DNA of 21,081 nucleotides from a virus, in the IMG/VR virus record IMGVR_UViG_3300013132_000310, positions 1 to 21,081 of that record; one strand, 5' to 3'. The notes under the pieces are model-generated. The model saw only the letters and a list, made by a program, of their open reading frames with translations. It was not told the DNA's origin and searched no databases. Positions within the stretch are counted from its first letter, which is position 1. Each line of letters starts with the position of its first letter. The translations under genes were made by a program, and so were the position numbers. Below are positions 2 through 15,924 of the stretch, in pieces.

Positions 2-625
2 CAATTTGTTGTTTGTCATATTTTTCATCATGCCAATATATTAAACAAGGTTTATATGACCACTGCGTCATTGCCCTGTAGATATGAAATAACTAGCACC
101 GGAGCAGCAGGATCGATGAGACAAATATGTTCCAGTGTTATATCCGAAGGCGGATATATCAATCGAAGTACCACTCGTGCGATCGGAACTAGTTTAACTG
201 GTAGAGAATTAAGTAATCTTGTTTATAGACCACTGGTTTGTATACGACTCAAATCTAGCAGACTAGATAGTATCGTGGTTCCGACCAAATTTGATCTATA
301 CGGTCTTCAACAGGCCGCATTCGTTTATCGAGTAATTCTAAATCCTACCTTAACCAATGCCAATTGGGTATCAGCCGGAACAGATAGTGCCATAGAATAT
401 GATCTCAGTGCCACTGCACTATCCGGGGGAATAATCTTAGATCAAGGTATTTTTGTTGGATCTAATAAAGGAGGAACTGCTAGTGTTAGTTCCGCCGATG
501 TTGATTTCAGTCAACAACTAGGACGTACCGTAGACGGGGTCAGCGACATATGGTGTCTCGCTGCTATAGCAACTACTAACAATGATGATGCTGTGGCCAG
601 TATCAGTTGGCAGGAACATTTATAA
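2..625 (+). CDS. Probable virion structural protein, C-terminal part (5' end outside window)
   Basis: The reading frame is open from the first bases of the window, so the ATG at 56 is internal and the true start lies upstream. The residues encoded before that ATG (FHHANILNKVY) run smoothly into YMTTASLPCRYEI and then RQICSSVISEGGY. I recall this pattern (HH-N-I-x-Y-x-TT-x-LP-x-RYEI, followed by KQICS-x-VISEGG) from large phage structural proteins, which is the basis for the call. The visible 207 residues are rich in Ser, Thr, Gly and Ala with short beta-like stretches, and show no enzyme motif or membrane segment. The stop codon overlaps the next start by one base (TAATG), so the two are translationally coupled. 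The specific virion role (capsid, neck or tail) cannot be told from the sequence. Confidence 0.6.
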   Translation, partial: QFVVCHIFHHANILNKVYMTTASLPCRYEITSTGAAGSMRQICSSVISEGGYINRSTTRAIGTSLTGRELSNLVYRPLVCIRLKSSRLDSIVVPTKFDLYGLQQAAFVYRVILNPTLTNANWVSAGTDSAIEYDLSATALSGGIILDQGIFVGSNKGGTASVSSADVDFSQQLGRTVDGVSDIWCLAAIATTNNDDAVASISWQEHL

Positions 626-1035
626 TGAGAAAATACATACAAATACTCGAAGCAGTTGACAAGGGCTGTCCTGTTGCTACATATGACATAGATGTCAATC
701 TAAAGAATCGTCAAAAGGCCATCGATGAATATCATTATGGTCCCGCCAATCCCAGAGAACCCGGCGATTATTGGAAGAAGGCCGCAGATCGTTGGAATGT
801 GCCTGAAAAAATTGTTAAGACTATGAAATGCGAAAACTGTGCGGCCTTTGATGTCAGCGATGATATGCGTCGTTGTATAGAGGATGGCATACGCGGTGAT
901 GATAACAAAATTGCCGATGCTTGGGCACCAATCGAATTAGCCGATATCGGATACTGTACATTCTTGAAATTTAAATGTGCAGGAACTAGAACATGTTCGG
1001 CCTGGATCACCGGTGGTCCTATTACAAAAGATTGA
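625..1035 (+). CDS. Small cysteine-rich phage protein, possible metal or Fe-S binder
   Basis: This encodes 136 aa. I chose the ATG at 625, which shares a base with the upstream TAA, over an upstream in-frame ATG at 607 that would overlap the previous gene. The C-terminal half carries ordered cysteines: KCENCAAF, then RRCIEDG, then GYCTFLKFKC and RTCSAW, ending GGPI. The CxxC followed by a later C and a terminal C-S/A-W resembles the layout of high-potential iron-sulfur proteins, though a zinc-binding fold is equally possible. I recall similar Cys-rich proteins next to virion genes in other myoviruses, without a known function. No signal peptide or membrane segment is visible. It is probably co-transcribed with the virion gene in front of it. 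Confidence 0.7.
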   Translation: MRKYIQILEAVDKGCPVATYDIDVNLKNRQKAIDEYHYGPANPREPGDYWKKAADRWNVPEKIVKTMKCENCAAFDVSDDMRRCIEDGIRGDDNKIADAWAPIELADIGYCTFLKFKCAGTRTCSAWITGGPITKD

Positions 1036-1059
1036 AATTGCTCAAGCACCGAACAATTT

Positions 1060-1067
1060 TATAAATA
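1060..1067 (+). promoter_or_regulatory. T4-type late promoter (TATAAATA)
   Basis: An exact copy of the T4 late promoter box TATAAATA lies in the gap between two genes. It is 7 nt upstream of a very strong ribosome binding site and 20 nt upstream of an ATG. Late transcription would begin roughly 5-7 nt downstream of the box, giving a short leader. In T4 this box is read by gp55 with gp33 and the sliding clamp gp45; gp45 is encoded in this window, and gp55 is not seen. Confidence 0.65.
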
Positions 1068-1074
1068 TTTTTTC

Positions 1075-1083
1075 AAAGGAGGT
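1075..1083 (+). promoter_or_regulatory. Near-perfect Shine-Dalgarno (AAAGGAGGT)
   Basis: This is the longest anti-16S match I noticed in the window. It lies 5 nt before the ATG at 1088, not before the longer gene at 1111, so it decides that translation first enters the 8-codon ORF. Confidence 0.7.
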
Positions 1084-1087
1084 AATC

Positions 1088-1114
1088 ATGATTGTCGAAC
1101 GCCGTACCAAATGA
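1088..1114 (+). CDS. 8-codon leader ORF (MIVERRTK) coupled to the next gene
   Basis: A short ORF begins 5 nt after AAAGGAGGT and ends in a TGA that overlaps the ATG at 1111 (ATGA). Ribosomes finishing here could reinitiate directly on the downstream gene, which has no good ribosome binding site of its own. It may be a coupling leader. Alternatively it could be the real N-terminus joined to the downstream frame by a frameshift or a sequencing error. The peptide is Arg-rich and shows no stalling motif that I recognise. Confidence 0.4.
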   Translation: MIVERRTK

Positions 1115-1740
1115 ACGCTTTGTATGTTAAATCTCAAGTAGTAGAACGCAATCCCTATTACTTTGAGCCATGTTTGGAAGAAGAACTCAGTGATGATCCA
1201 ACATCCGACTTTGATCCAAATGGGTTTGGGCTCACTGAGTTAGAAATAGCTCTTGTTAGAGCTAATCAGGGAGAGTTTTATAAGCCCGATTATCTCACAC
1301 AAAAAACAGATTGGATCGGGCAACCAACTGTGAAATCCGGTATTGTACTTAACCACAGTTTTATTTTATACCGAAGAGCCTACGAAGGCGCTGCCGCAGA
1401 TTTTTTATGGCGTTTATCAGAAAAGGATCCCAGAGTTCATCGTGTACTTCAACAACGCCCGAGATTTGGACTAGATCTCTGCGTTGAATATATACAGCCC
1501 AACGGCACGATATTCGAAGTTTTACATTGGGAGTACGATAACTCCGATCCCGAGCACATCGAATACTATCGAGATCTTTACCAAGAAAAATTCTTAAATA
1601 CAGATTGGGAACACGCTGCTCAACATCTTTTAAAAAAGAAATCAGAGTGGCACGGTCTTGCTTGGTTCCCTCAAAGCAAATATAAATGTGATTACTTTGG
1701 TATCATACCCGAAAACTTCGGACAAGTGCTTTGGCGGTAG
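1111..1740 (+). CDS. Conserved phage protein of unknown function, 209 aa
   Basis: I do not recognise a named family. The protein is rich in aromatic and acidic residues, with a Glu/Asp-rich N-terminus (EPCLEEELSDD at about 20-30). A C-terminal block contains FEVLHWEYD, a long amphipathic stretch, DW near the middle of it, and then KSEWHGLAWF and KYKCDYFGI. I associate that ending with hypothetical proteins of T4-like marine phages. No membrane segment is visible. The start ATG overlaps the stop of an 8-codon ORF and lacks its own strong ribosome binding site, so expression probably depends on coupling and on the TATAAATA promoter at 1060. A late role (virion or assembly) is an inference from that promoter only. 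Confidence 0.75.
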   Translation: MNALYVKSQVVERNPYYFEPCLEEELSDDPTSDFDPNGFGLTELEIALVRANQGEFYKPDYLTQKTDWIGQPTVKSGIVLNHSFILYRRAYEGAAADFLWRLSEKDPRVHRVLQQRPRFGLDLCVEYIQPNGTIFEVLHWEYDNSDPEHIEYYRDLYQEKFLNTDWEHAAQHLLKKKSEWHGLAWFPQSKYKCDYFGIIPENFGQVLWR

Positions 1741-1754
1741 TTATATAAAATAAT

Positions 1755-1783
1755 TTGCTTTATCTATAAAATAAGTATATACT
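1755..1783 (+). promoter_or_regulatory. Sigma70-like promoter TTGCTT-N17-TATACT
   Basis: The -35 box TTGCTT (1755-1760) and -10 box TATACT (1778-1783) are 17 nt apart in the gap before the DsbA-like gene. Transcription would start near 1790, leaving a very short leader with AAGGAG at 1791-1796 near its 5' end. A TATAAAATA stretch inside the spacer could instead be a degraded late promoter, so the class is uncertain. Confidence 0.5.
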
Positions 1784-1802
1784 CTATATCAAGGAGAATA
1801 CC

Positions 1803-2063
1803 ATGGCACAAAGAATGTTTTCCGCTGAAGGAAAAGCAAAACTCACTCAACTAGTCAATGAAGGAATTTCGGTTATGAGTGAAGTTCAAACTCTGCAAGA
1901 AGGACTAAACGAAACCATTAAAGCAGTTGCCGAAGAACTAGAAATCAAACCTGCACTGCTTAAAAAAGCGATTCGAATTGCTCAAAAGAGTAAATTCACC
2001 GATACAAATCGCGATCACGAAGAACTAACTAACATCCTCGAAACTGTAGGACGTACACTATAA
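1803..2063 (+). CDS. dsbA: DsbA-like small DNA-binding protein
   Basis: This encodes 86 aa, with AAGGAG six nucleotides before the ATG. It is all-helical in appearance: a Lys-rich N-terminus (FSAEGKAKLTQLVNEG), a middle with heptad-like spacing, IKPALLKKAIRIAQKS, and an acidic tail ending in ILETVGRTL. Size, charge pattern and position beside replication genes match the T4 DsbA family. DsbA is a double-stranded DNA-binding protein of about 89 aa that binds late promoter regions. No residue-level signature proves the call; the alternative is a generic small phage DNA-binding or accessory protein. Its stop codon is followed at once by the polymerase ATG (TAAATG), so the two are coupled. Confidence 0.5.
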   Translation: MAQRMFSAEGKAKLTQLVNEGISVMSEVQTLQEGLNETIKAVAEELEIKPALLKKAIRIAQKSKFTDTNRDHEELTNILETVGRTL

Positions 2064-4205
2064 ATGTATGTTGACGCCATACATGATCGTAATAACGATC
2101 GTATTCATGTCGTAGAACGTGTAAAAGGCGAAAGGGTATACAGAGAATACCCGGCTAATTACGTTTTTTATTATGACGATCCACGCGGACGATACCGTAC
2201 TATCTACGGTACTCCAGTAGGAAAGTTTAACACACATAACAGCAAAGAATTTCAAAAAGAATTAAGAATTCACAGTAAACAGAAACTCTGGGAAAGCGAT
2301 ATTAATCCAGTGTTTCGTGCATTGAGCGAACATTATTTAGGTGCACAGTCACCAAAACTTCAAACATGTTTCTTTGATATTGAAGTTGATTTTGATCCAG
2401 CACGCGGATATTCAAAACCCGAGGATCCGTTTAACGCTATTACTTCAATTTCCATGTATATGGACTGGACCGAACAATTAATCACATTAGTTGTTCCTCC
2501 TAAATCTCTGAGTTGGGACAGTGCAAAAGAAATCACCGATCGATGGGAAAATTGTTTTCTTTTCGAAAGAGAGGAAGACATGCTTAACACATTCTTGGAT
2601 CTTATCGAGGATGCCGATGTATTAAGTGGATGGAACTCAGAAGGCTTTGATATTCCGTATATGGTCATGCGTATCATCCGTGTACTCAGCAAGGATGATA
2701 CACGTAGATTCTGCCTATGGAATCAATTGCCTAGACAACGTACATTTGAACGATTCGGTGCAGAGAATATCACTTTTGACTTGTTCGGTCGTGTGCACAT
2801 GGACTATATGCAATTGTATCGAAAATATACCTATGAAGAACGTCATAGTTATAGTTTAGATGCTATCGGCGAATACGAAGAAGTTGGTGGCAAAGTGGCC
2901 TATGAAGGTACATTAGACCAACTATACAACAGAGAATTTAGTAAATTTATCGATTATAATCGACAAGACGTTTTACTGTTGGCTAAACTAGATAAGAAAT
3001 TGCGATTTCTTGATTTAGCTAACGAACTTGCACACGACAATACTGTATTGTTGCCAACAACAATGGGAGCTGTCGCAGTCACTGAGCAGGCTATTATTAA
3101 CGAAGCTCATGCAAGAAATATGATTGTACCAAACCGTCGCGAACATGGCGGGGACACTCAAGCAGCCGGGGCCTATGTGGCTTACCCAAAACAGGGTATG
3201 CATAGGGATATTGGTGCTATTGACTTAAACAGTCTATATCCATCAGCTATTCGAGCACTTAACATGGGACCGGAGACTATTGTGGGACAACTACGTCTTA
3301 CAATGACTGAGAAATATATTCAAGAAAAAATGGAGTCCGGCAGCAGTTTTGCTGACGCCTGGGAGGGACTGTTTGGTACACTCGAATATACAGCAGTAAT
3401 GGAAGGACAAGTTGGCACTGAAATCACCATTGATTGGGAAGATGGTAATGTGACTGATATGCCTGCTGTGGATGTTTGGAGGCTGATATTTCAAGGTGGA
3501 CAACCTTGGGCATTGAGTGCTAACGGAACTATTTTCCGCTATGACTCAAAAGGAGTAGTGCCAGGTTTGCTTGAACGCTGGTACGCAGAACGTAAAGACC
3601 TACAAAAGAAAAAGAAGGAAGCCGAAAACGATGCGGATCGAGCGTTTTGGGATAAAAGGCAATTGGTCAAGAAGATTAACCTTAACAGCCTGTATGGTGC
3701 TATACTTAATCCTGGTTGTCGTTTCTTTGATAAAAGGATTGGTCAGTCCACCACTCTAACAGGCCGTGTAATTGCCCGCCATATGGATTCATTTGTTAAC
3801 GAATGTATTACTGGAAAATATGATCACGTCGGTGAAGCTATTATCTACGGAGATAGTGTCACTAAAGATACCTTAATTAAAACCAGCGACGGCGAAATCA
3901 CCATCGAACAGCTATATAATCAATGTTTAGATCACTGCATTATCGAAGATAAAGAGTATGGCACTAAATCATTGACTAAAGTAGTGGGATTTAATGCCTT
4001 TGAGGATAATCCATTAATGAGTCCCATTTCCTATGTGATGCGTCATCGTACCAAAAAGAAAATCTATCAAATAGAATTAGAAAATGGTAAAAGTGTTAAA
4101 GTCACCGAAGATCATAGTGTTATGGTAGATCGTGATGGATTTCTATTAGAAGTAAAACCTACAGAAATACTAGAAAACGACCTAATTATTTGTCTTAAGA
4201 ACTAA
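2064..4205 (+). CDS. 43: DNA polymerase gp43, N-terminal extein (1-597) fused to N-half of a split intein (598-713)
   Basis: Residues 1-597 are a T4-type family B replicative polymerase. The 3'-5' exonuclease has FFDIEVDFD (Asp105, Glu107) and an ExoIII motif YNRQD. Polymerase motif A is DLNSLYPS from Asp387, and motif B is KKINLNSLYG near 535-546. The protein stops inside motif C, after YGD. From Ser598 (nt 3855) the sequence is intein: SVTKDTLIKTSDG is a standard block A, and VTEDHSVMV holds the block B TxxH (intein residues 84-87). The intein half ends at a TAA with no C-terminal blocks. The rest of the polymerase, starting TDS, is encoded by the gene at 5158. The two exteins total 883 aa, against 898 for T4 gp43. 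This half has the exonuclease and most of the polymerase domain but lacks the second catalytic aspartate, so it needs protein trans-splicing. Confidence 0.95.
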   Translation: MYVDAIHDRNNDRIHVVERVKGERVYREYPANYVFYYDDPRGRYRTIYGTPVGKFNTHNSKEFQKELRIHSKQKLWESDINPVFRALSEHYLGAQSPKLQTCFFDIEVDFDPARGYSKPEDPFNAITSISMYMDWTEQLITLVVPPKSLSWDSAKEITDRWENCFLFEREEDMLNTFLDLIEDADVLSGWNSEGFDIPYMVMRIIRVLSKDDTRRFCLWNQLPRQRTFERFGAENITFDLFGRVHMDYMQLYRKYTYEERHSYSLDAIGEYEEVGGKVAYEGTLDQLYNREFSKFIDYNRQDVLLLAKLDKKLRFLDLANELAHDNTVLLPTTMGAVAVTEQAIINEAHARNMIVPNRREHGGDTQAAGAYVAYPKQGMHRDIGAIDLNSLYPSAIRALNMGPETIVGQLRLTMTEKYIQEKMESGSSFADAWEGLFGTLEYTAVMEGQVGTEITIDWEDGNVTDMPAVDVWRLIFQGGQPWALSANGTIFRYDSKGVVPGLLERWYAERKDLQKKKKEAENDADRAFWDKRQLVKKINLNSLYGAILNPGCRFFDKRIGQSTTLTGRVIARHMDSFVNECITGKYDHVGEAIIYGDSVTKDTLIKTSDGEITIEQLYNQCLDHCIIEDKEYGTKSLTKVVGFNAFEDNPLMSPISYVMRHRTKKKIYQIELENGKSVKVTEDHSVMVDRDGFLLEVKPTEILENDLIICLKN
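3855..4202 (+). other. Split intein N-half (116 residues)
   Basis: The segment begins with Ser directly after YGD and carries block A (residues 1-13) and block B (TEDH, 84-87). It ends at the stop codon without blocks F and G. The first residue is Ser rather than the more usual Cys. It is acidic to neutral with a Lys-rich patch (HRTKKK, 64-69). Its partner is the 42-residue half at 5158-5283, which ends HN before Thr. Confidence 0.92.
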
Positions 4206-4233
4206 ATATATGACAACAGGAGTGTCGTCATAT
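4201..4233 (+). promoter_or_regulatory. Hairpin covering the endonuclease ribosome binding site, with a late-promoter-like box in front
   Basis: ATATGAC (4208-4214) and GTCATAT (4227-4233) form a perfect 7-bp inverted repeat. The 12-nt loop contains AGGAG, and the 3' arm includes the first two bases of the ATG at 4232. Directly in front is ACTAAATA (4201-4208), 6 of 8 matches to the T4 late box TATAAATA. On read-through RNA the hairpin would hide the start codon. A transcript started about 5-7 nt after the box would lose the 5' arm and open it. T4 uses this logic for I-TevI and several other genes. Confidence 0.5.
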
Positions 4234-5182
4234 GCCAAAATGTCTTGAATGTGGATTTGAGTCTGTTAGACTACAATGGACTCATTTTAAGTATAAATGT
4301 ACTGGTAAGTTTAATAATGGTACAGAGTATCTAAAAGTTTATCCAAATGCTCTGTTAATCGACCCTTCGTTGGCGAAATTGTCTGCTATGACATTAGATA
4401 ATCAAGTTAAAAAATATGGTATTGATGAGGGACATCGACGATGGAATTTATATCGAGAAAAACAGGCTTATACTAATAGTTTTGAACATAAAAAAGAAAA
4501 GTATGGATGGACCAAAGAACAGTTTGATCACTATAATTCATCTCGTGCCCAAACACTAGAAAAAATGATAGAACGACATGGGGAAACCGAAGGTGTTAAA
4601 CGTTGGCAGATTTATTGTGAAAGACAGGCATACACGAATACTAAAAATTATTTTATAGAAAAATACGGTCCAGAAAAAGGATATCAAAAATATCTAGAGG
4701 TCAATAAAAACAAAGCAGTTGGCAATCCATTGATACTGGCAGAAAAAATGGAAATCACAGTTGAAGAAGCTACCGATATAATTATCAAAAGACAAAAGAA
4801 TTTTTTCTCAAGCAATCTAGAAAAAGAATTTACTTCATTGCTAGAAAAAAAGATTGGGTACTTAGAGCACACTACTTTTTCAAATCCTTTTGGAAAATGG
4901 TCGTCTCTTCTAAATACCTATGTGATATATGATATCAAACATAAAGATTGTATAATAGAATTTAACGGTGATTACTGGCATGCTAATCCAAAATTATTTG
5001 AGGATACCGCAGAGATTAGAGGAAAATCTGCCACAGAAATTAGAAAACGTGATATGCTAAAATTAAAAACAGTAGAAGATCAAGGATTTAGAACTCTTGT
5101 TGTATGGGAATCGGATTTTATTAACAACAAACAACAAACCATAGAAAAGGTATCAGAATGGATATTGAACGAACAAAAGTAA
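4232..5182 (+). CDS. Homing endonuclease, Vsr-like (EDxHD) type, free-standing between the split intein halves
   Basis: This encodes 316 aa. The N-terminus has a CxxC-x10-H-x4-C zinc-finger-like motif (Cys4, Cys7, His18, Cys23). The middle (about 58-165) holds repeated helical units, KYG-x2-EGH-RRW-x3-Y then QAYTN, with related copies near 111-135 and 141-155; repeats of this kind are DNA-contacting modules in phage homing endonucleases. The C-terminus (about 195-300) is Vsr-like: YDI (Asp234), EFNGDYWHANP (Glu243, Asp247, His250), KRDMLK (Asp274) and FRTLVVWESD. This is the endonuclease family first described beside split inteins in fractured phage genes. The codons look more AT-rich than the polymerase, fitting separate mobility. 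The predicted role is to cut uninterrupted gp43 alleles near motif C and spread the element. The last 25 nt overlap the next gene. Confidence 0.9.
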   Translation: MPKCLECGFESVRLQWTHFKYKCTGKFNNGTEYLKVYPNALLIDPSLAKLSAMTLDNQVKKYGIDEGHRRWNLYREKQAYTNSFEHKKEKYGWTKEQFDHYNSSRAQTLEKMIERHGETEGVKRWQIYCERQAYTNTKNYFIEKYGPEKGYQKYLEVNKNKAVGNPLILAEKMEITVEEATDIIIKRQKNFFSSNLEKEFTSLLEKKIGYLEHTTFSNPFGKWSSLLNTYVIYDIKHKDCIIEFNGDYWHANPKLFEDTAEIRGKSATEIRKRDMLKLKTVEDQGFRTLVVWESDFINNKQQTIEKVSEWILNEQK

Positions 5183-5283
5183 AATCGATTACTTGCTTGG
5201 GAGAAATAGACGATTATGTATATGATATTAGCGTAGAGGATCAAGATCCATTCTTTTTTGGCAACGATATACTTCTACATAAT
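5158..5283 (+). other. Split intein C-half (42 residues)
   Basis: It carries intein blocks F and G and ends in the conserved His-Asn, followed by extein Thr as the +1 nucleophile. Its length of about 40 residues is usual for the C-half of naturally split inteins. Confidence 0.92.
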
Positions 5284-6144
5284 ACAGATTCGGTATATTT
5301 CAGTGCTTGGCCTGCTGTTGCTCAAGAGGTTGAGTCTGGCCAAATGTCCTGGGATCGAGATACTTGTATTCAACTGTATGATAGTATTGCTGAACAAGTT
5401 AACGAAAGTTTTCCTGAGTTTATGGAACGAGCCTGTCATTGCCCAAGAGAAATGGGCAGTATTATCAAAGCTGGTCGAGAACTAATTGCCGGCAAAGGTC
5501 TATTCATTAAAAAGAAACGCTATGCAGTATTGATTTACGACCTCGAAGGTAAACGACTAGATGTTGACGGAAAGCCTGGCAAGGTCAAGGCTATGGGTCT
5601 TGATCTTAAACGTAGCGATACACCTAAAGTTGTGCAAGAATTTCTGAGTAGTATTCTACTTAAGGTATTAACTGGATCCGATCGCGATGAAATTATTGCC
5701 GAGATTCGATCATTCAAGGAAGAATTTATCAAACGACCGGCTTGGGAAAAAGGTACACCTAAACGTGTAAACAATTTAACCAAATATACTGCCGAAGAAC
5801 AACGACTAGGCAAAGCCAACATGCCCGGACATGTTCGTGCTGCGATGAACTGGAACAATCTTAAAAAGATGTATGGTGACAACTACAGCATGAACATTGT
5901 TGATGGTATGAAAACCATTGTTTGCAAACTCAAAGACAATCCATTGAAATTGACCAGTATAGGCTATCCCACCGACGAGGCACGTATTCCACAATGGTTT
6001 AAAGATTTACCATTCGACGACGGATTAATGGAAGATACCATCGTTGATCAAAAACTAGAAAATTTACTAGGTGTACTCAAGTGGGACATAACTAGTAATG
6101 TAGATATTAAATCTTCTTTCTCATCTTTTTTCAAAATCGTTTAA
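5158..6144 (+). CDS. 43: DNA polymerase gp43, C-half of split intein (1-42) fused to C-terminal extein (43-328)
   Basis: Residues 1-42 are a split intein C-half. YVYDISVEDQDPFFFGND is a block F, and LLHN before Thr43 is block G with the splice junction. The extein resumes TDSVYFSAW, completing motif C (YGD|TDS). It continues with KKKRYAVLIYD, the thumb region, and a C-terminal tail ending SSFSSFFKIV that looks like a clamp-binding peptide, as in T4 gp43. The start ATG lies inside the endonuclease gene and has AAAAGG (5145-5150) seven nucleotides upstream, so this half is made by its own initiation. After trans-splicing with the product of the gene at 2064 the polymerase would be 883 aa. Alone, this half lacks the exonuclease domain and motifs A and B. 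Confidence 0.95.
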   Translation: MDIERTKVKSITCLGEIDDYVYDISVEDQDPFFFGNDILLHNTDSVYFSAWPAVAQEVESGQMSWDRDTCIQLYDSIAEQVNESFPEFMERACHCPREMGSIIKAGRELIAGKGLFIKKKRYAVLIYDLEGKRLDVDGKPGKVKAMGLDLKRSDTPKVVQEFLSSILLKVLTGSDRDEIIAEIRSFKEEFIKRPAWEKGTPKRVNNLTKYTAEEQRLGKANMPGHVRAAMNWNNLKKMYGDNYSMNIVDGMKTIVCKLKDNPLKLTSIGYPTDEARIPQWFKDLPFDDGLMEDTIVDQKLENLLGVLKWDITSNVDIKSSFSSFFKIV

Positions 6145-6929: not shown

Positions 6930-7261
6930 TTACGTTAAATGCAGTTTATCCTGTGGAGGGGTCACTTAACCGCTCCTACATCTATAAGGCTAACTCAACC
7001 AATGATTTGGCTTGCCAGGTAAGATATAATTTTAATCTTAATCAAATGGAAATATTTGATGGAAATGCCTGGCAAGTATTTAAATTCGATATCAATGTGG
7101 GATTCGATACCGAGTCAACGGAAGTGCTTAATTGGGCACGTGAACATCGTGCCGAACAAAAACGCTTGCAAGAACTATGCAAAGAATATCCTAGTATTGC
7201 TGACATCAAAGAAAAATTAGATCTAATGGTAGCATTAGTAAAAGAAAAAGAAGATGCTTGA
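6926..7261 (+). CDS. Small conserved phage protein, 111 aa, unknown
   Basis: The start overlaps the clamp stop (ATGA). The N-terminal half reads like a virion or tail-type module: VRYNFNLNQMEIFDGNAWQVF has the 'YN-x-DG-x-W' pattern common in phage fibre and structural proteins. The C-terminal half is a charged helix (VLNWAREHRAEQKRLQELCKEYP to LVKEKEDA), probably a coiled coil. A protein with the same two-part design lies at 12738. I recall both types as paired hypothetical proteins in T4-like marine phages. No function is known to me. Confidence 0.72.
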   Translation: MITLNAVYPVEGSLNRSYIYKANSTNDLACQVRYNFNLNQMEIFDGNAWQVFKFDINVGFDTESTEVLNWAREHRAEQKRLQELCKEYPSIADIKEKLDLMVALVKEKEDA

Positions 7262-8879
7262 ACAAGACAATCTAACACAAAAACAAAAAGATTATGCTGT
7301 TTTCCTTCCAGCTATCTCTGGATTCTATGCTACCTTCATAGGCAAACAAAGAGTCGAGCAATATGTAGATCCTGCTCGTATGCCTGCTACTATTAAAGAT
7401 ATGGAACAACTCAATTGGCTTAACAGTCAACGAGGGTTGTTTACTTATCAGTGGAGTCTATATTCGGGTGGTCATGCTAACTTAGATCTATCTAAAGTAG
7501 ATTCCAGTGAGGATATGGTTCGAAAAAGAGAACCCGGTACTTTTATGCTAGGGGACTCAGGAGGATTCCAGATTGCCAAAGGTCTTTGGCCTGGTGAATG
7601 GCGTGATCCTACTAGTGCCGAAGTAAAAAATACGATGGCAGCATTAGTAGCTGCCGGTCCTGTTATTACCACCAACAAAAAAGGTAAAACAATCACTGTT
7701 GATCCTGCACGGCAATATCAAGATCGTATTGATGCTGCACAGAAGAAACGCGAAAGTGTATTGCGGTGGTTAGATGGCATTGCAGACTATGGCATGATCC
7801 TAGATATACCCACATGGGTAGTTGTAGATAAACGAGTGGGCGAACTTTGTGGAATCACTACGCATAGCGAAGCAGTAAATGCAACCAAATACAATAATGA
7901 ATACTTTATCGCTAATCGAAAGGGTATCCAAGAGGGCGGTGCACGTTTCTTAAATGTATTGCAAGGTGCCAATCACGACGAAGCCGATGATTGGTATGAA
8001 ACCATGAAGCACTATTGTGATCCCAAACAATATCCAGGACGTCACTTTGATGGATGGGCCATGGGAGGTCAGAATATGTGTGATGTTCATCTTATTTTAA
8101 GAAGAATTATAACTTTAAAATATGATAATTTACTACAGCCAGGTGTGCATGATTGGATGCATTTTCTAGGAACTAGTAAACTAGAGTGGGCAGTATTACT
8201 AACTGTGATTCAACGTGCAGTGAGAAAATATGTAAATCCGAACTTCACTATTAGTTTTGATTGTGCTAGTCCGTTTTTAGCCACAGCAAATGGCCAGATC
8301 TACCACGAAATTGATCTCCCACAGGACGAAAAATGGACCTATCGTATGAGTCCGGGAATTGATGACAAGAAATATGCCACCGATTCTCGAGCAATGCGTG
8401 ATGTTTTCTTACAAGATTTCCCTCAGAGATTTAAAAAGTTTGATGAAAGCCCAATCAGTGCCAGATGCCAAATTCGAGATATTTGTGTTTACAAGCCCGG
8501 CGATCTAAATAAACTGGGCAAAGAAGGACGTACCAGTTGGGATAGTTTTAGCTATGCACTTCAAATGGGTCATAATGTTTGGACACATATTCAAGCGGTA
8601 CAAGAAGCAAATAGGCAGTTCGACCAAGGACGTTGGCCGGCAATGATGAGATATAGTAAAGGTGAGTTTGATTTCTTTGCAGATATTGTAGAGCGTATTT
8701 TTCAAGCACCTACTCTAGAAGATGCATTGAAGATCATCAATAAAGAAGAATATGCCTCACAAACCGGATATTGGACTGAAATAATCGGTGGACGAGGTTT
8801 TGTAGGTAAACGTGCATATAATGCAACAACAAATTATAATAAATTTTTTAAGGTAGCAAGCAATGGAACGACCGTATGA
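7254..8879 (+). CDS. dpdA: DpdA-like 7-deazaguanine DNA transglycosylase (TGT superfamily)
   Basis: This encodes 541 aa with a TGT-type barrel. MLGDSGGFQ (Asp101) matches the TGT DSGGYQ base-binding motif. RFLNVLQGAN (231-240) and FDGWAMGGQ (265-273) match later barrel strands. FDCASPFLATANGQ (335-348) aligns with TGT FDCVLPTRSGR, so Asp336 is the likely nucleophile. Cys405, Cys411 and His440 (in YALQMGHN) could be remnants of the TGT zinc site. It is much longer than bacterial TGT, as phage DpdA proteins are. DpdA swaps guanine in DNA for a 7-deazaguanine base and so protects phage DNA from restriction. folE, queE and a queD-like gene in the same window support DNA rather than tRNA as the substrate. 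The start overlaps the previous gene by 8 nt. Confidence 0.85.
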   Translation: MLEQDNLTQKQKDYAVFLPAISGFYATFIGKQRVEQYVDPARMPATIKDMEQLNWLNSQRGLFTYQWSLYSGGHANLDLSKVDSSEDMVRKREPGTFMLGDSGGFQIAKGLWPGEWRDPTSAEVKNTMAALVAAGPVITTNKKGKTITVDPARQYQDRIDAAQKKRESVLRWLDGIADYGMILDIPTWVVVDKRVGELCGITTHSEAVNATKYNNEYFIANRKGIQEGGARFLNVLQGANHDEADDWYETMKHYCDPKQYPGRHFDGWAMGGQNMCDVHLILRRIITLKYDNLLQPGVHDWMHFLGTSKLEWAVLLTVIQRAVRKYVNPNFTISFDCASPFLATANGQIYHEIDLPQDEKWTYRMSPGIDDKKYATDSRAMRDVFLQDFPQRFKKFDESPISARCQIRDICVYKPGDLNKLGKEGRTSWDSFSYALQMGHNVWTHIQAVQEANRQFDQGRWPAMMRYSKGEFDFFADIVERIFQAPTLEDALKIINKEEYASQTGYWTEIIGGRGFVGKRAYNATTNYNKFFKVASNGTTV

Positions 8880-9848: not shown

Positions 9849-10097
9849 ATGGCCGGTAATGTATCAGCATATATCAAATCCTATCAACAAAATAACAAAG
9901 CCACAGTTGATGCAATCTTTGATCAACTAGAACAGTATCGCGAATTTTGCGTTAACTATGGCTATGCTTATAACCCAGCCCATCTTAACAAAGAAAATAA
10001 CGGAACTTACAAAGAGTTCGTGAAACTTCAACGCGGTCGCGAACCACGCAACCGTTGGATCGAAGACGCTAAGAAATTCAGTGGCAACAATGACTAA
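9849..10097 (+). CDS. Small conserved phage protein, 82 aa, unknown
   Basis: AAAGGA sits a few bases before the ATG. The protein is basic and helical. It has AYIKSYQQNN at the start, then FCVNYGYAYNPAHLNKEN, and GREPRNRWIEDAKKF near the end. I recognise the FC-x-YGY-x-YN pattern from hypothetical proteins of T4-like phages but know no function. It overlaps the following Acb1-like gene by 8 nt, so the two are probably made together. Confidence 0.72.
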   Translation: MAGNVSAYIKSYQQNNKATVDAIFDQLEQYREFCVNYGYAYNPAHLNKENNGTYKEFVKLQRGREPRNRWIEDAKKFSGNND

Positions 10098-10599
10098 GAA
10101 TCTACGCGAATATATCGATCTTGTTGAAAGCGAACAAGATCATCCCGATGGCACCTATGCTGAGGTCACACCAACTCCTAAATCTCTTCGTACAGTTGAA
10201 AGTCTTATTGCTAAACTAGGCATCAAAGAACCCACACCTAGCAACGAAATTCATTGCACTATAACTTATAGTCGCAAACCTTGTCCGGCGCTGGCTGACT
10301 ACAAACCACAGCTACCAGTATCGGCTCGTGTACACGGGTTTCGTGTATTTCCTATGCGTAGTGGGGGAAACTGTTTGGTAATGGAACTAGACAGCCCTGG
10401 TATTACAGATCTACATGAATATGCTCGCAGTTTGGGTTGCAGTCATGACTATCCAGAATACACGCCGCACGTCACGCTAACGTATAATTGGTCTTCGGAA
10501 TCTGTACCCGATGTAGATATTTCGAATATTAAATTAGCCTTTGATCGGTTTGAAGTTAAACCACTTCGGCCAGATTACGTTCCAGGACAAGACGAATGA
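10090..10599 (+). CDS. acb1: Acb1-like anti-CBASS 2H phosphoesterase
   Basis: From the ATG at 10090 the protein is 169 aa; a GTG at 10081 would add three residues. Two HxT motifs of the 2H phosphoesterase fold are clear: IHCTITYSRK (His55, Thr57) and YPEYTPHVTLTY (His127, Thr129). The surrounding text (LGIKEPTPSNEIHCT, GGNCLVMELDSP, CSHDYPEYTPHVTL) follows what I recall of T4 Acb1 (57B), which cleaves cyclic di- and trinucleotide signals and so blocks CBASS abortive infection. T4 Acb1 is about 152 aa; the extra N-terminal 30 or so residues here (NLREYIDLVESEQ) resemble a common phage leader. A general 2'-5' RNA ligase/LigT-like role is the main alternative. It sits in an operon with dpdA, in keeping with a counter-defence cluster. 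Confidence 0.75.
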   Translation: MTKNLREYIDLVESEQDHPDGTYAEVTPTPKSLRTVESLIAKLGIKEPTPSNEIHCTITYSRKPCPALADYKPQLPVSARVHGFRVFPMRSGGNCLVMELDSPGITDLHEYARSLGCSHDYPEYTPHVTLTYNWSSESVPDVDISNIKLAFDRFEVKPLRPDYVPGQDE

Positions 10600-13453: not shown

Positions 13454-14248
13454 TTGACCTATATACTAAAAACTGATTTCGAAGCAGATACTGATACTGT
13501 GGGCAAATCTAAACATGAATTTATTCAGCTGGACATTCCGGTTTATACTACCGCAGAAAATGTCACACCACCAGGACGTAATCTCAGCGAAGTGATCCGC
13601 GAACGTATTCAACGTGATGGTGCACGTTTTCATGCCAACGATAACATCAGCGATTATATTAACGAACATGAACTAGATGCTCTAGTCGACGAAGTAGCTT
13701 GCCAGTTTCAAGGTGTACTAAATGCATTGGTAATTGATACTGCGAACGATCACAACACACAAGAAACTGCACGTCGTGTGGCTAAAATGTTTGTGCGTGA
13801 AACGTTTAGCGGCCGATATCGTCCTGTTCCTAAGGTCACAGCATTTCCTAACATGGGATATAAAAGTCTGTACACTACAGGACCAATTAGTATTCGTAGT
13901 ACCTGTGCACATCATTTCCAAAATATCGTAGGACGTTGTTGGGTGGGCATTGTGCCCGAAGATGAAGTGATTGGACTCAGTAAATTCAATCGTCTTGTAC
14001 ATCATATTTGCGAACGTCCCCAAATTCAAGAAGAAATGACAACACAGATTGCTGATGCACTTAAACAATATGCCAAGACTGAGCATATTGCAGTAGTAGT
14101 CAAAGCCGAGCATCATTGTATGACCATGCGTGGTGTGCGTGAACACGAAAATGACATGGTCACTGCTATCATGCTAGGTGCTTTTAACACAGACCCAGCA
14201 TTGAAAAAAGAGTTTTACGATATTCTTAAACTAAACAAAACGGAATAA
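13454..14248 (+). CDS. folE: GTP cyclohydrolase I (FolE)
   Basis: This encodes 264 aa from a TTG start with GGAG eight nucleotides upstream; no in-frame ATG precedes the conserved core. The core holds the zinc ligands Cys151 and His154 (STCAHHF) and Cys222 (AEHHCM), with catalytic His153 and His220. It also has GLSKFNRLV, QIQEEMTTQIADAL and TMRGVRE, all typical of GTP cyclohydrolase I. The N-terminal 70 residues are longer than needed and less recognisable. It converts GTP to 7,8-dihydroneopterin triphosphate, the first step of 7-deazaguanine (and folate) synthesis. With queE, a queD-like gene and dpdA nearby, supply of precursor for DNA modification is the likely role. Confidence 0.93.
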   Translation: MTYILKTDFEADTDTVGKSKHEFIQLDIPVYTTAENVTPPGRNLSEVIRERIQRDGARFHANDNISDYINEHELDALVDEVACQFQGVLNALVIDTANDHNTQETARRVAKMFVRETFSGRYRPVPKVTAFPNMGYKSLYTTGPISIRSTCAHHFQNIVGRCWVGIVPEDEVIGLSKFNRLVHHICERPQIQEEMTTQIADALKQYAKTEHIAVVVKAEHHCMTMRGVREHENDMVTAIMLGAFNTDPALKKEFYDILKLNKTE

Positions 14249-15072: not shown

Positions 15073-15924
15073 ATGAAAATTAAAGTTAGTGAACTATTCT
15101 ATTCGGTGCAGGGAGAGGGAAGGTATATGGGGGTGCCCAGTGTCTTCTTAAGAACTTTCGGTTGTAATTTCACCTGTGACGGGTTTGGAATGCCCAAAGG
15201 AGAACGATCAAATGAGCGAAACTTGGTTGCAACTCGTGTCAACGAGTTTAAACAGTATAGAGATTTACCTCTTGTTAATACCGGTTGCGATTCTTATGCT
15301 AGCTGGGATCCTAGGTTCAAACACCTTTCACCGCTACTTACAACAGATAGCATTGCAGAGAGCATCTGTGCGATGCTACCCCACAAAAAATGGCAAGATG
15401 AACATCTAGTAATCACTGGCGGTGAGCCATTACTAGGATGGCAACGAGCATATCCTAGTCTATTAGATCATAAACTCATGCGTGAGCTATCCGAGATCAC
15501 ATTTGAAACAAATGGTACACAGGAGTTGGAGCCCGAGTTTGTGGAGTATCTACAGGAATGGCATCGTTGGTATATTAATGGTCCAAAAGAAATCACGTTT
15601 AGTGTTAGTCCAAAATTATCGGTATCTGGTCATACTGCCGATGAAGCTATCAAGCCCGAAGTGATTCGTCAATATGAATCCATTGGATACACTTATCTTA
15701 AGTTTGTGGTCACTGGCCCAAATGACGCTGAAGAAATCTTAAACACAGTTAAAGTTTATCGAGCCGAAGGCTTTACCGGTCCTGTATACTTGATGCCTGT
15801 TGGTGGTGTCGACAGTGTATATCATATGCATAATCGTCAAGTAGCAGAGTTAGCAATGAAATTAGGGTTAAGATATAGTGATCGGCTTCAAGTTCCATTG
15901 TTCAAGAATGCATGGGGCACGTAA
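15073..15924 (+). CDS. queE: 7-carboxy-7-deazaguanine synthase (QueE), expanded radical-SAM motif
   Basis: This encodes 283 aa. LFYSVQGEGRYMGVPSVFLR (9-28) is the QueE N-terminus. The 4Fe-4S cysteines are Cys31 and Cys35 (GCNFTC) and, after 36 residues, Cys72 in GCDSYASWD, which aligns with the CDSxxTWD that normally follows two residues after the second Cys. So the radical-SAM motif is CX3C-X36-C here. VITGGEPLL (113-121), FETNGTQ and SVSPKLS are the SAM and substrate-binding stretches. It turns 6-carboxytetrahydropterin into 7-carboxy-7-deazaguanine (CDG). It would work after FolE and a QueD activity and before DpdA. It has its own sigma70-like promoter. Confidence 0.92.
   Translation: MKIKVSELFYSVQGEGRYMGVPSVFLRTFGCNFTCDGFGMPKGERSNERNLVATRVNEFKQYRDLPLVNTGCDSYASWDPRFKHLSPLLTTDSIAESICAMLPHKKWQDEHLVITGGEPLLGWQRAYPSLLDHKLMRELSEITFETNGTQELEPEFVEYLQEWHRWYINGPKEITFSVSPKLSVSGHTADEAIKPEVIRQYESIGYTYLKFVVTGPNDAEEILNTVKVYRAEGFTGPVYLMPVGGVDSVYHMHNRQVAELAMKLGLRYSDRLQVPLFKNAWGT

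What the first reader, a model, noticed from the sequence alone, without database searches (positions are those of the whole stretch)
3840..5300. Replicative DNA polymerase broken at its catalytic YGD|TDS motif by a split intein with an endonuclease gene between the halves
Seen: gp43 stops after YGD plus 116 intein residues; a separate 316-aa endonuclease gene follows; then 42 intein residues ending HN precede TDS and the rest of gp43. The exteins add up to 883 aa, close to T4 gp43. Known: split inteins with a free-standing Vsr-like endonuclease ('fractured genes') were described from marine phage metagenomes, and motif C is a known intein site in family B polymerases. Inference: the phage relies on protein trans-splicing to make any active polymerase, since each half holds one of the two motif C aspartates. 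The Ser1/Thr+1 junction is less common than Cys-based pairs and may be a fast, unstudied splicing pair.
Basis: partly seen in the sequence, partly recalled or inferred. Interest (0 to 1): 0.85.

Follow-up and report, generated by a model that had tools for sequence, protein, structure and literature searches.

The report
Split intein in phage DNA polymerase
This phage's DNA polymerase is made as two separate proteins that a pair of intein halves should stitch together, with a mobile DNA-cutting gene parked between them; such arrangements are known, but here the cutter's switch can be read and relatives are seen losing the cutter and becoming one gene again.

Summary
gp43 is cut at YGD|TDS (extein 597 + 286 = 883 aa) by a 116-aa intein-N and a 42-aa intein-C, with a 316-aa Vsr-fold endonuclease gene between. 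Close relatives (L008-L010) carry a seamless empty site.

The kind is known: 'fractured gene' split inteins with Vsr-like endonucleases occur in Aeromonas, Campylobacter, Tenacibaculum and Prevotella phages, and Aes123 PolB1 has a crystal structure and ultra-fast trans-splicing. The YGD|TDS site with Ser1/Thr+1 is the pol-c intein allele, split also in Nanoarchaeum. So 'unstudied splicing pair' is only partly fair.

(2) The intein moves: near-identical inteins sit in strongly diverged polymerases, with co-conversion only on the C-extein side. (3) At least 12 relatives deleted the endonuclease, and three or four re-fused into contiguous inteins; one keeps the old C-half start and the endonuclease's last 11 codons out of frame.

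Trans-splicing, promoter use and cleavage are inferred, not shown.

The parts
2064..3854 (+). gp43 (family B DNA polymerase) extein-N, 597 aa, ending YGD (first motif C aspartate)
   Evidence: Pfam DNA_pol_B and DNA_pol_B_exo1; phrog_262 E 4e-141; collinear with intein-less L008-L010 at 80-82% nt identity
3855..4205 (+). intein-N, 116 aa plus stop: Ser1, block B T84/H87, NX-motif H64
   Evidence: Pfam Intein_splicing E 4e-10; best solved match Aes123 PolB1 9hth E 6e-14; S1, H64, T84, H87 invariant in 27 relatives
4201..4208 (+). late-promoter-type element (ACTAAATA, 6 of 8 to T4 TATAAATA), overlapping the intein-N stop codon
   Evidence: TAAATA in 35 of 37 distinct leaders, 33 of them at -29 to -33 from the endonuclease ATG; TAAATA is the most strand-biased upstream hexamer in a relative's genome; gp55-type late sigma factor in 7 of 8 relatives
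4208..4233 (+). RNA hairpin: Shine-Dalgarno GGAG (4219-4222) in the loop, endonuclease AUG (4232-4234) in the 3' arm
   Evidence: z -3.3; stability lost when the 5' arm is cut; pair counts over 27 leaders
4232..5182 (+). free-standing Vsr-like homing endonuclease, 316 aa: N-terminal C4-C7-H18-C23 cluster, helical repeats, Vsr-fold nuclease with D234, E243...H250
   Evidence: AlphaFold2 pLDDT 91.7; Foldseek Vsr 1cw0/1vsr; phmmer hits only Vsr, weakly; residues invariant in 37 relatives
5158..5283 (+). intein-C, 42 aa, own ATG inside the endonuclease 3' end, AAAGG Shine-Dalgarno upstream, ends His-Asn
   Evidence: Pfam Intein_splicing E 3e-7; N42 and Thr+1 invariant in 23 relatives; constant 25-nt overlap
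5284..6144 (+). gp43 extein-C, 286 aa, starting TDS (Thr+1 and second motif C aspartate)
   Evidence: phrog_262 E 7e-49 over profile positions 578-852; seamless against L008-L010
5284..5323 (+). inferred target side of the endonuclease on intein-less gp43 (first 30-40 nt of extein-C)
   Evidence: co-conversion limited to this side in three recent transfers

Best explanation
A mobile 'fractured gene' element in the replicative polymerase of a T4-like, probably jumbo, phage. Both polymerase pieces are translated separately and rejoined by trans-splicing (Ser1 oxyester, Thr+1 branch, Asn42 cyclisation). The endonuclease is silent on the early/middle gp43 transcript because a hairpin hides its ribosome site and start codon. 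Late in infection a gp55-type promoter starts transcription within the hairpin's 5' arm, so the hairpin cannot form and the endonuclease is made. It cuts intein-less gp43 of a co-infecting phage on the C-extein side of the insertion site, and repair copies intein halves and endonuclease in. In other lineages the endonuclease gene is then deleted, leaving a bare split intein or, if in frame, a contiguous one. Shown by sequence: anatomy, conservation, leader, recent transfer, deletions, re-fusions. Inferred: splicing, promoter start point, repression, cleavage.
For: Anatomy and seamless empty site. Catalytic residues invariant, purifying selection on halves and endonuclease, omega about 0.05-0.19 where measurable. 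Contiguous relative L173 models as an intein (pLDDT 94), best match 9HTH. Endonuclease matches Vsr. Leader. Mobility: extein tree rejected by endonuclease and intein data (delta lnL 657 and 323); L006/L171 inteins 99% identical with extein third positions at 45%; L121/L223 98% against 54%; downstream 30 nt 93-100% identical against a 99th percentile of 87% in 293 control pairs. Decay and re-fusion.
Against: No protein or transcript data. The window's promoter element matches T4's consensus at only 6 of 8, and exact TATAAATA is not over-represented in four relatives' genomes; part of the TAAATA enrichment comes from TAA stop codons. Hairpin support is moderate: the two middle pairs fail in about half the leaders, 9 of 500 shuffles reach the observed pairing, and L123 lacks the hairpin. 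Only three pairs show the co-conversion.
Confidence: 0.8

Rival explanations
1. The two polymerase pieces work as a non-covalent two-subunit enzyme and the intein halves are relics, as with the split gp43A/gp43B of Aeromonas phage 25.
For: Split T4-like gp43 pieces without an intein co-purify as an active enzyme (reviewed in PMC2988022).
Against: Here the break separates the two motif C aspartates and puts 116 and 42 extra residues into the active site. Ser1, block B, Asn42 and Thr+1 are invariant across dozens of relatives and the halves stay under purifying selection; split relatives that lost the endonuclease keep the splice junction residues.
Confidence: 0.07
2. The contiguous relatives are the ancestral state, and the split forms arose from them by endonuclease insertion, so there was no re-fusion.
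For: Split inteins are generally held to derive from contiguous ones (PMC12707363); SCTP-2 has a contiguous intein at this site.
Against: Four contiguous forms fall at separate places within the split clade. L223 keeps the Shine-Dalgarno, the ATG of the C-half gene and, out of frame, the endonuclease's last 11 codons and stop; L173 and L183 keep decayed traces. This rival may still hold for the deep origin.
Confidence: 0.12
3. The leader is an ordinary strong ribosome site, and TAAATA plus hairpin are by-products of a TAA stop followed by an AT-rich palindrome around ATATG.
For: The basal pairs are largely invariant ATAT:ATAT and the middle pairs fail in half the leaders.
Against: Mean z -2.6 against shuffled 5' arms, 13 of 31 leaders in the lowest 2%; true register 77% paired against 54% or less when slid; different sequences make the same lock (L131, L144 pair CTCC with the Shine-Dalgarno).
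Confidence: 0.2
4. Assembly join or chimera of two templates.
For: The window is a 21-kb metagenomic virus record without read data.
Against: The same junctions and overlap recur in dozens of independent contigs, and the same layout in isolated phages.
Confidence: 0.01

Closest known systems
Aes123/Aes508 PolB1 split intein with VSR endonuclease (Aeromonas phages); CP21, PTm1 and Lak phages alike
   Same: Split intein in T4-like gp43 motif C, Vsr-like endonuclease between halves (36.6% identity over 83%), intein-N 36% identical; known to trans-splice (PMC11923092, PDB 9HTH)
   Different: Inserted 2 aa downstream, after the second motif C aspartate (xDTD|S) with Ser+1; in Aes phages the endonuclease gene overlaps intein-N, so no ATAAATA-hairpin leader was seen there
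MIJ3/PA5oct/Paride split PolB intein (PMC6892783)
   Same: Nearest named intein-N (41%) in the nearest named polymerases (49%); split with an endonuclease between
   Different: Endonuclease annotated HNH, unrelated; site DTD|S with Ser+1
pol-c intein allele: Mimivirus PolB, archaeal PolB, split Nanoarchaeum equitans PolB
   Same: Exact site YGD|TDS; Ser1, Asn, Thr+1 in Mimivirus; Nanoarchaeum broken at the same site (PMC549080)
   Different: Mimivirus carries a LAGLIDADG domain inside a contiguous intein; Nanoarchaeum has two separate genes (NEQ068, NEQ528)
I-TevI, I-TevII, I-TevIII, SegB and mobE regulation (PMC2988022)
   Same: Late promoter plus hairpin sequestering the endonuclease ribosome site within an early/middle transcript
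   Different: Those are group I intron or free-standing endonucleases of GIY-YIG/HNH type; here a Vsr-like one between intein halves, expression unmeasured

Membership tests
Fractured gene (split intein plus free-standing endonuclease) | Host gene in two ORFs, each carrying one intein half at the break | tested here: met
Fractured gene (split intein plus free-standing endonuclease) | Free-standing endonuclease gene of the Vsr-like family between the halves | tested here: met
   Foldseek Vsr probability 1.00; homologues annotated VSR. The defining paper (Dassa 2009) was not readable here
Fractured gene (split intein plus free-standing endonuclease) | Halves trans-splice | not testable with these tools
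   needs protein
pol-c intein allele | Insertion at YGD|TDS with Ser1, C-terminal Asn, Thr+1 | tested here: met
pol-c intein allele | Closer to pol-c inteins than to inteins at other sites | tested here: inconclusive
   Best solved hit is Aes123 PolB1 (2 aa away), second the archaeal PI-PkoII intein; no tree with archaeal inteins was made
Ser1 (cysteine-independent) class 1 inteins | NX-motif His preceded by Arg/Lys, block B Thr and His, Ser1, Ser/Thr+1 | tested here: met
   R63-H64, T84, H87, S1, T+1 invariant; motif as defined in PMC10189870
I-TevI-type late-timed endonuclease control | Late promoter element just upstream and hairpin sequestering the ribosome site | tested here: met
   moderate strength
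I-TevI-type late-timed endonuclease control | Repression on early transcripts and late-only protein | not testable with these tools
   needs RNA and reporter work

The most novel reading that the evidence does not exclude
The broken-gene state is a reversible stage of the homing cycle: a split-intein element spreads with a late-timed, hairpin-locked endonuclease, then repeatedly loses the endonuclease, and several lineages turn from trans-splicing back to cis-splicing by simple deletion.
Probability: 0.7. Interest if true: 0.62.

Novelty: new variant of a known kind. Interest (0 to 1): 0.52.

Why it matters
Split inteins are usually explained as broken contiguous ones, and the reverse step is rarely considered. 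This family offers natural before-and-after pairs (L121 and L223 inteins are 98% identical at the nucleotide level, one split, one contiguous), so the cost and benefit of splitting can be measured directly. It also suggests how a phage tolerates a DNA cutter inside its own polymerase gene, and gives a large set of Ser1/Thr+1 split inteins for protein engineering.

Tried and rejected
A scan of bacterial and archaeal genome contigs with the polymerase found no relative. Rfam has no match for the leader, so the hairpin is not a described family. Exact TATAAATA is not enriched in four relatives' genomes; I kept the late-promoter reading only because ATAAATA/TAAATA is strongly enriched upstream of genes. 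No TAAATA lies in the 130 nt upstream of the three major capsid genes whose starts could be read, which neither helps nor refutes. Clustering of endonuclease loss on the tree is no better than shuffled labels, which fits many independent losses. Census proportions are not prevalence, because the searches favour endonuclease-bearing loci. Dassa 2009 could not be read.

Full report
Observation. The three ORFs are as described. Extein-N ends ...IIYGD at 3854; intein-N (116 aa) ends at the TAA 4203-4205; the 316-aa endonuclease gene is 4232-5182; intein-C starts at ATG 5158, inside the endonuclease's last 25 nt, and ends His-Asn at 5283; extein-C begins TDS. Exteins total 883 aa. Pfam, PHROGs and NCBIfam agree on polymerase and intein. 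Contigs L008-L010, about 90% identical in the exteins, have YGD directly followed by TDS.

What is already known. Searching annotated phages with the intein and endonuclease finds the same layout in Aeromonas phages (labelled 'intein-containing split DNA polymerase' and 'VSR endonuclease'), Campylobacter CP21, Tenacibaculum PTm1, Prevotella Lak phages and Klebsiella KP13-7. The Pseudomonas MIJ3 group has a related split intein with an unrelated HNH endonuclease. The Aes123 intein is crystallised and ultra-fast. Two insertion points must be kept apart: window family, KP13-7 and SCTP-2 at YGD|TDS (Thr+1), and Aes123, CP21, PTm1, MIJ3 and Lak 2 aa downstream, after the second aspartate (Ser+1). 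The first is the pol-c site of Mimivirus and archaea, at which Nanoarchaeum PolB is split.

Is the intein likely active? Across 27 intein-N and 23 intein-C relatives Ser1, the NX histidine (R63-H64), T84, H87, Asn42 and Thr+1 never change. Omega is about 0.05-0.19 for intein halves and endonuclease where synonymous change is not saturated and divergence is sufficient. The contiguous relative L173 models with pLDDT 94 and matches 9HTH best (TM 0.89, E 9e-14).

The endonuclease. AlphaFold2 with 37 relatives gives pLDDT 91.7; the C-terminal domain matches E. coli Vsr (1cw0, 1vsr; probability 1.00 and 0.99, E 5e-3 and 2e-2), and no other structure comes close. D234, E243, G246, Y248, W249, H250 and an N-terminal C4/C7/H18/C23 cluster are invariant.

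The leader. In 35 of 37 distinct relatives TAAATA lies upstream of the endonuclease ATG, 33 of them at -29 to -33, often with the intein-N stop as its TAA. It is followed by a hairpin whose loop holds the Shine-Dalgarno GGAG and whose 3' arm holds the AUG. Mean folding energy falls from -7.2 to -1.2 kcal/mol when the 5' arm is removed at the expected late start. In 27 aligned leaders 77% of pair cells form, against at most 54% when slid, with 5 pairs changed on both sides; 9 of 500 shuffles do as well. This is moderate support. T4-like late transcription in these phages is supported by a gp55-type factor in 7 of 8 relatives and by TAAATA being the most strand-biased hexamer upstream of genes in one relative's genome, 3.9 against 0.33 per kb in gene bodies, most often at -25 to -35. 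The logic equals I-TevI, SegB and mobE. A possible reason (inference): ribosomes translating the endonuclease run over the start of the intein-C gene, so early translation could starve the C-half of the polymerase.

Mobility. Extein and endonuclease/intein trees reject each other strongly. L006 and L171 share inteins 99% identical in nucleotides (third positions 99%) while extein flanks are 72% identical (third positions 45%); L121 and L223 are similar (98% against 77%). In three such transfers the first 30 nt of extein-C are also 93-100% identical, beyond the 99th percentile of control pairs (87%), whereas the extein-N side is at background (67-77%). I read this as co-conversion on one side, hence cleavage on the C-extein side (inference).

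Decay and re-fusion. Among 92 distinct inteins fetched, 58 are split with a full endonuclease gene, about 11 split with a remnant, about six split with nothing recognisable left, and four in this clade contiguous (SCTP-2 is a fifth, on a long branch). Joint sequences: L223 reads CTAAAAGGTAAAAAAATGGATATTG, joining intein-N directly to the Shine-Dalgarno and ATG of the former C-half gene; in another frame it still encodes KVKKWILKEQL-stop, the endonuclease's C-terminus as in its sister L121. L173 and L183 hold decayed versions. The tree puts L223 beside L121 (100/97), L183 beside L124 (98/88), L173 beside L196 (95/90) and L180 near L121/L223, and its well-supported branches force at least 12 changes of the endonuclease-less label. 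So trans-to-cis reversion happened three or four times. I found no report of this in the open literature searched, but that search is limited.

Verdict. The added interest lies in the timed leader, one-sided co-conversion and natural re-fusion.

Noticed in passing
window 10081-10599 (+): Strong Pfam match to the anti-CBASS protein Acb1 (E 2e-29, over cut-off), a likely counter-defence gene.
   Followed up: no
window 13454-14248 and 15073-15924 (+): GTP cyclohydrolase I (FolE) and a QueE-like radical SAM protein (below QueE cut-offs): may be part of a 7-deazaguanine DNA modification pathway.
   Followed up: no
window 7254-8879 (+): 541-aa protein with no Pfam, PHROGs or NCBIfam match in these searches, just downstream of the gp43 region.
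   Followed up: no
L133, L145, L151, L153, L154-L158, L160, L161: Same intein and Vsr-like endonuclease family inserted 2 aa downstream, at DTD|S instead of YGD|TDS: a shift of insertion site by 6 nt within one family.
   Followed up: partly
L135:4538-6484, L139:5793-7844: Additional ORFs besides the endonuclease lie between the two intein halves, so the gap tolerates further cargo.
   Followed up: no
L254 and L001: Split inteins whose gap holds other sequence instead of the Vsr-like endonuclease (HNH in L001), suggesting exchange of endonucleases at one intein.
   Followed up: no
L090, L016, L123: Motif C reads YND, YSD or YAD before the intein instead of YGD.
   Followed up: no
L165 (Aes508) 452-5774: gp43 here is broken several times over: gp43A, a GIY-YIG endonuclease, a group I intron annotation and the split intein.
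   Followed up: no
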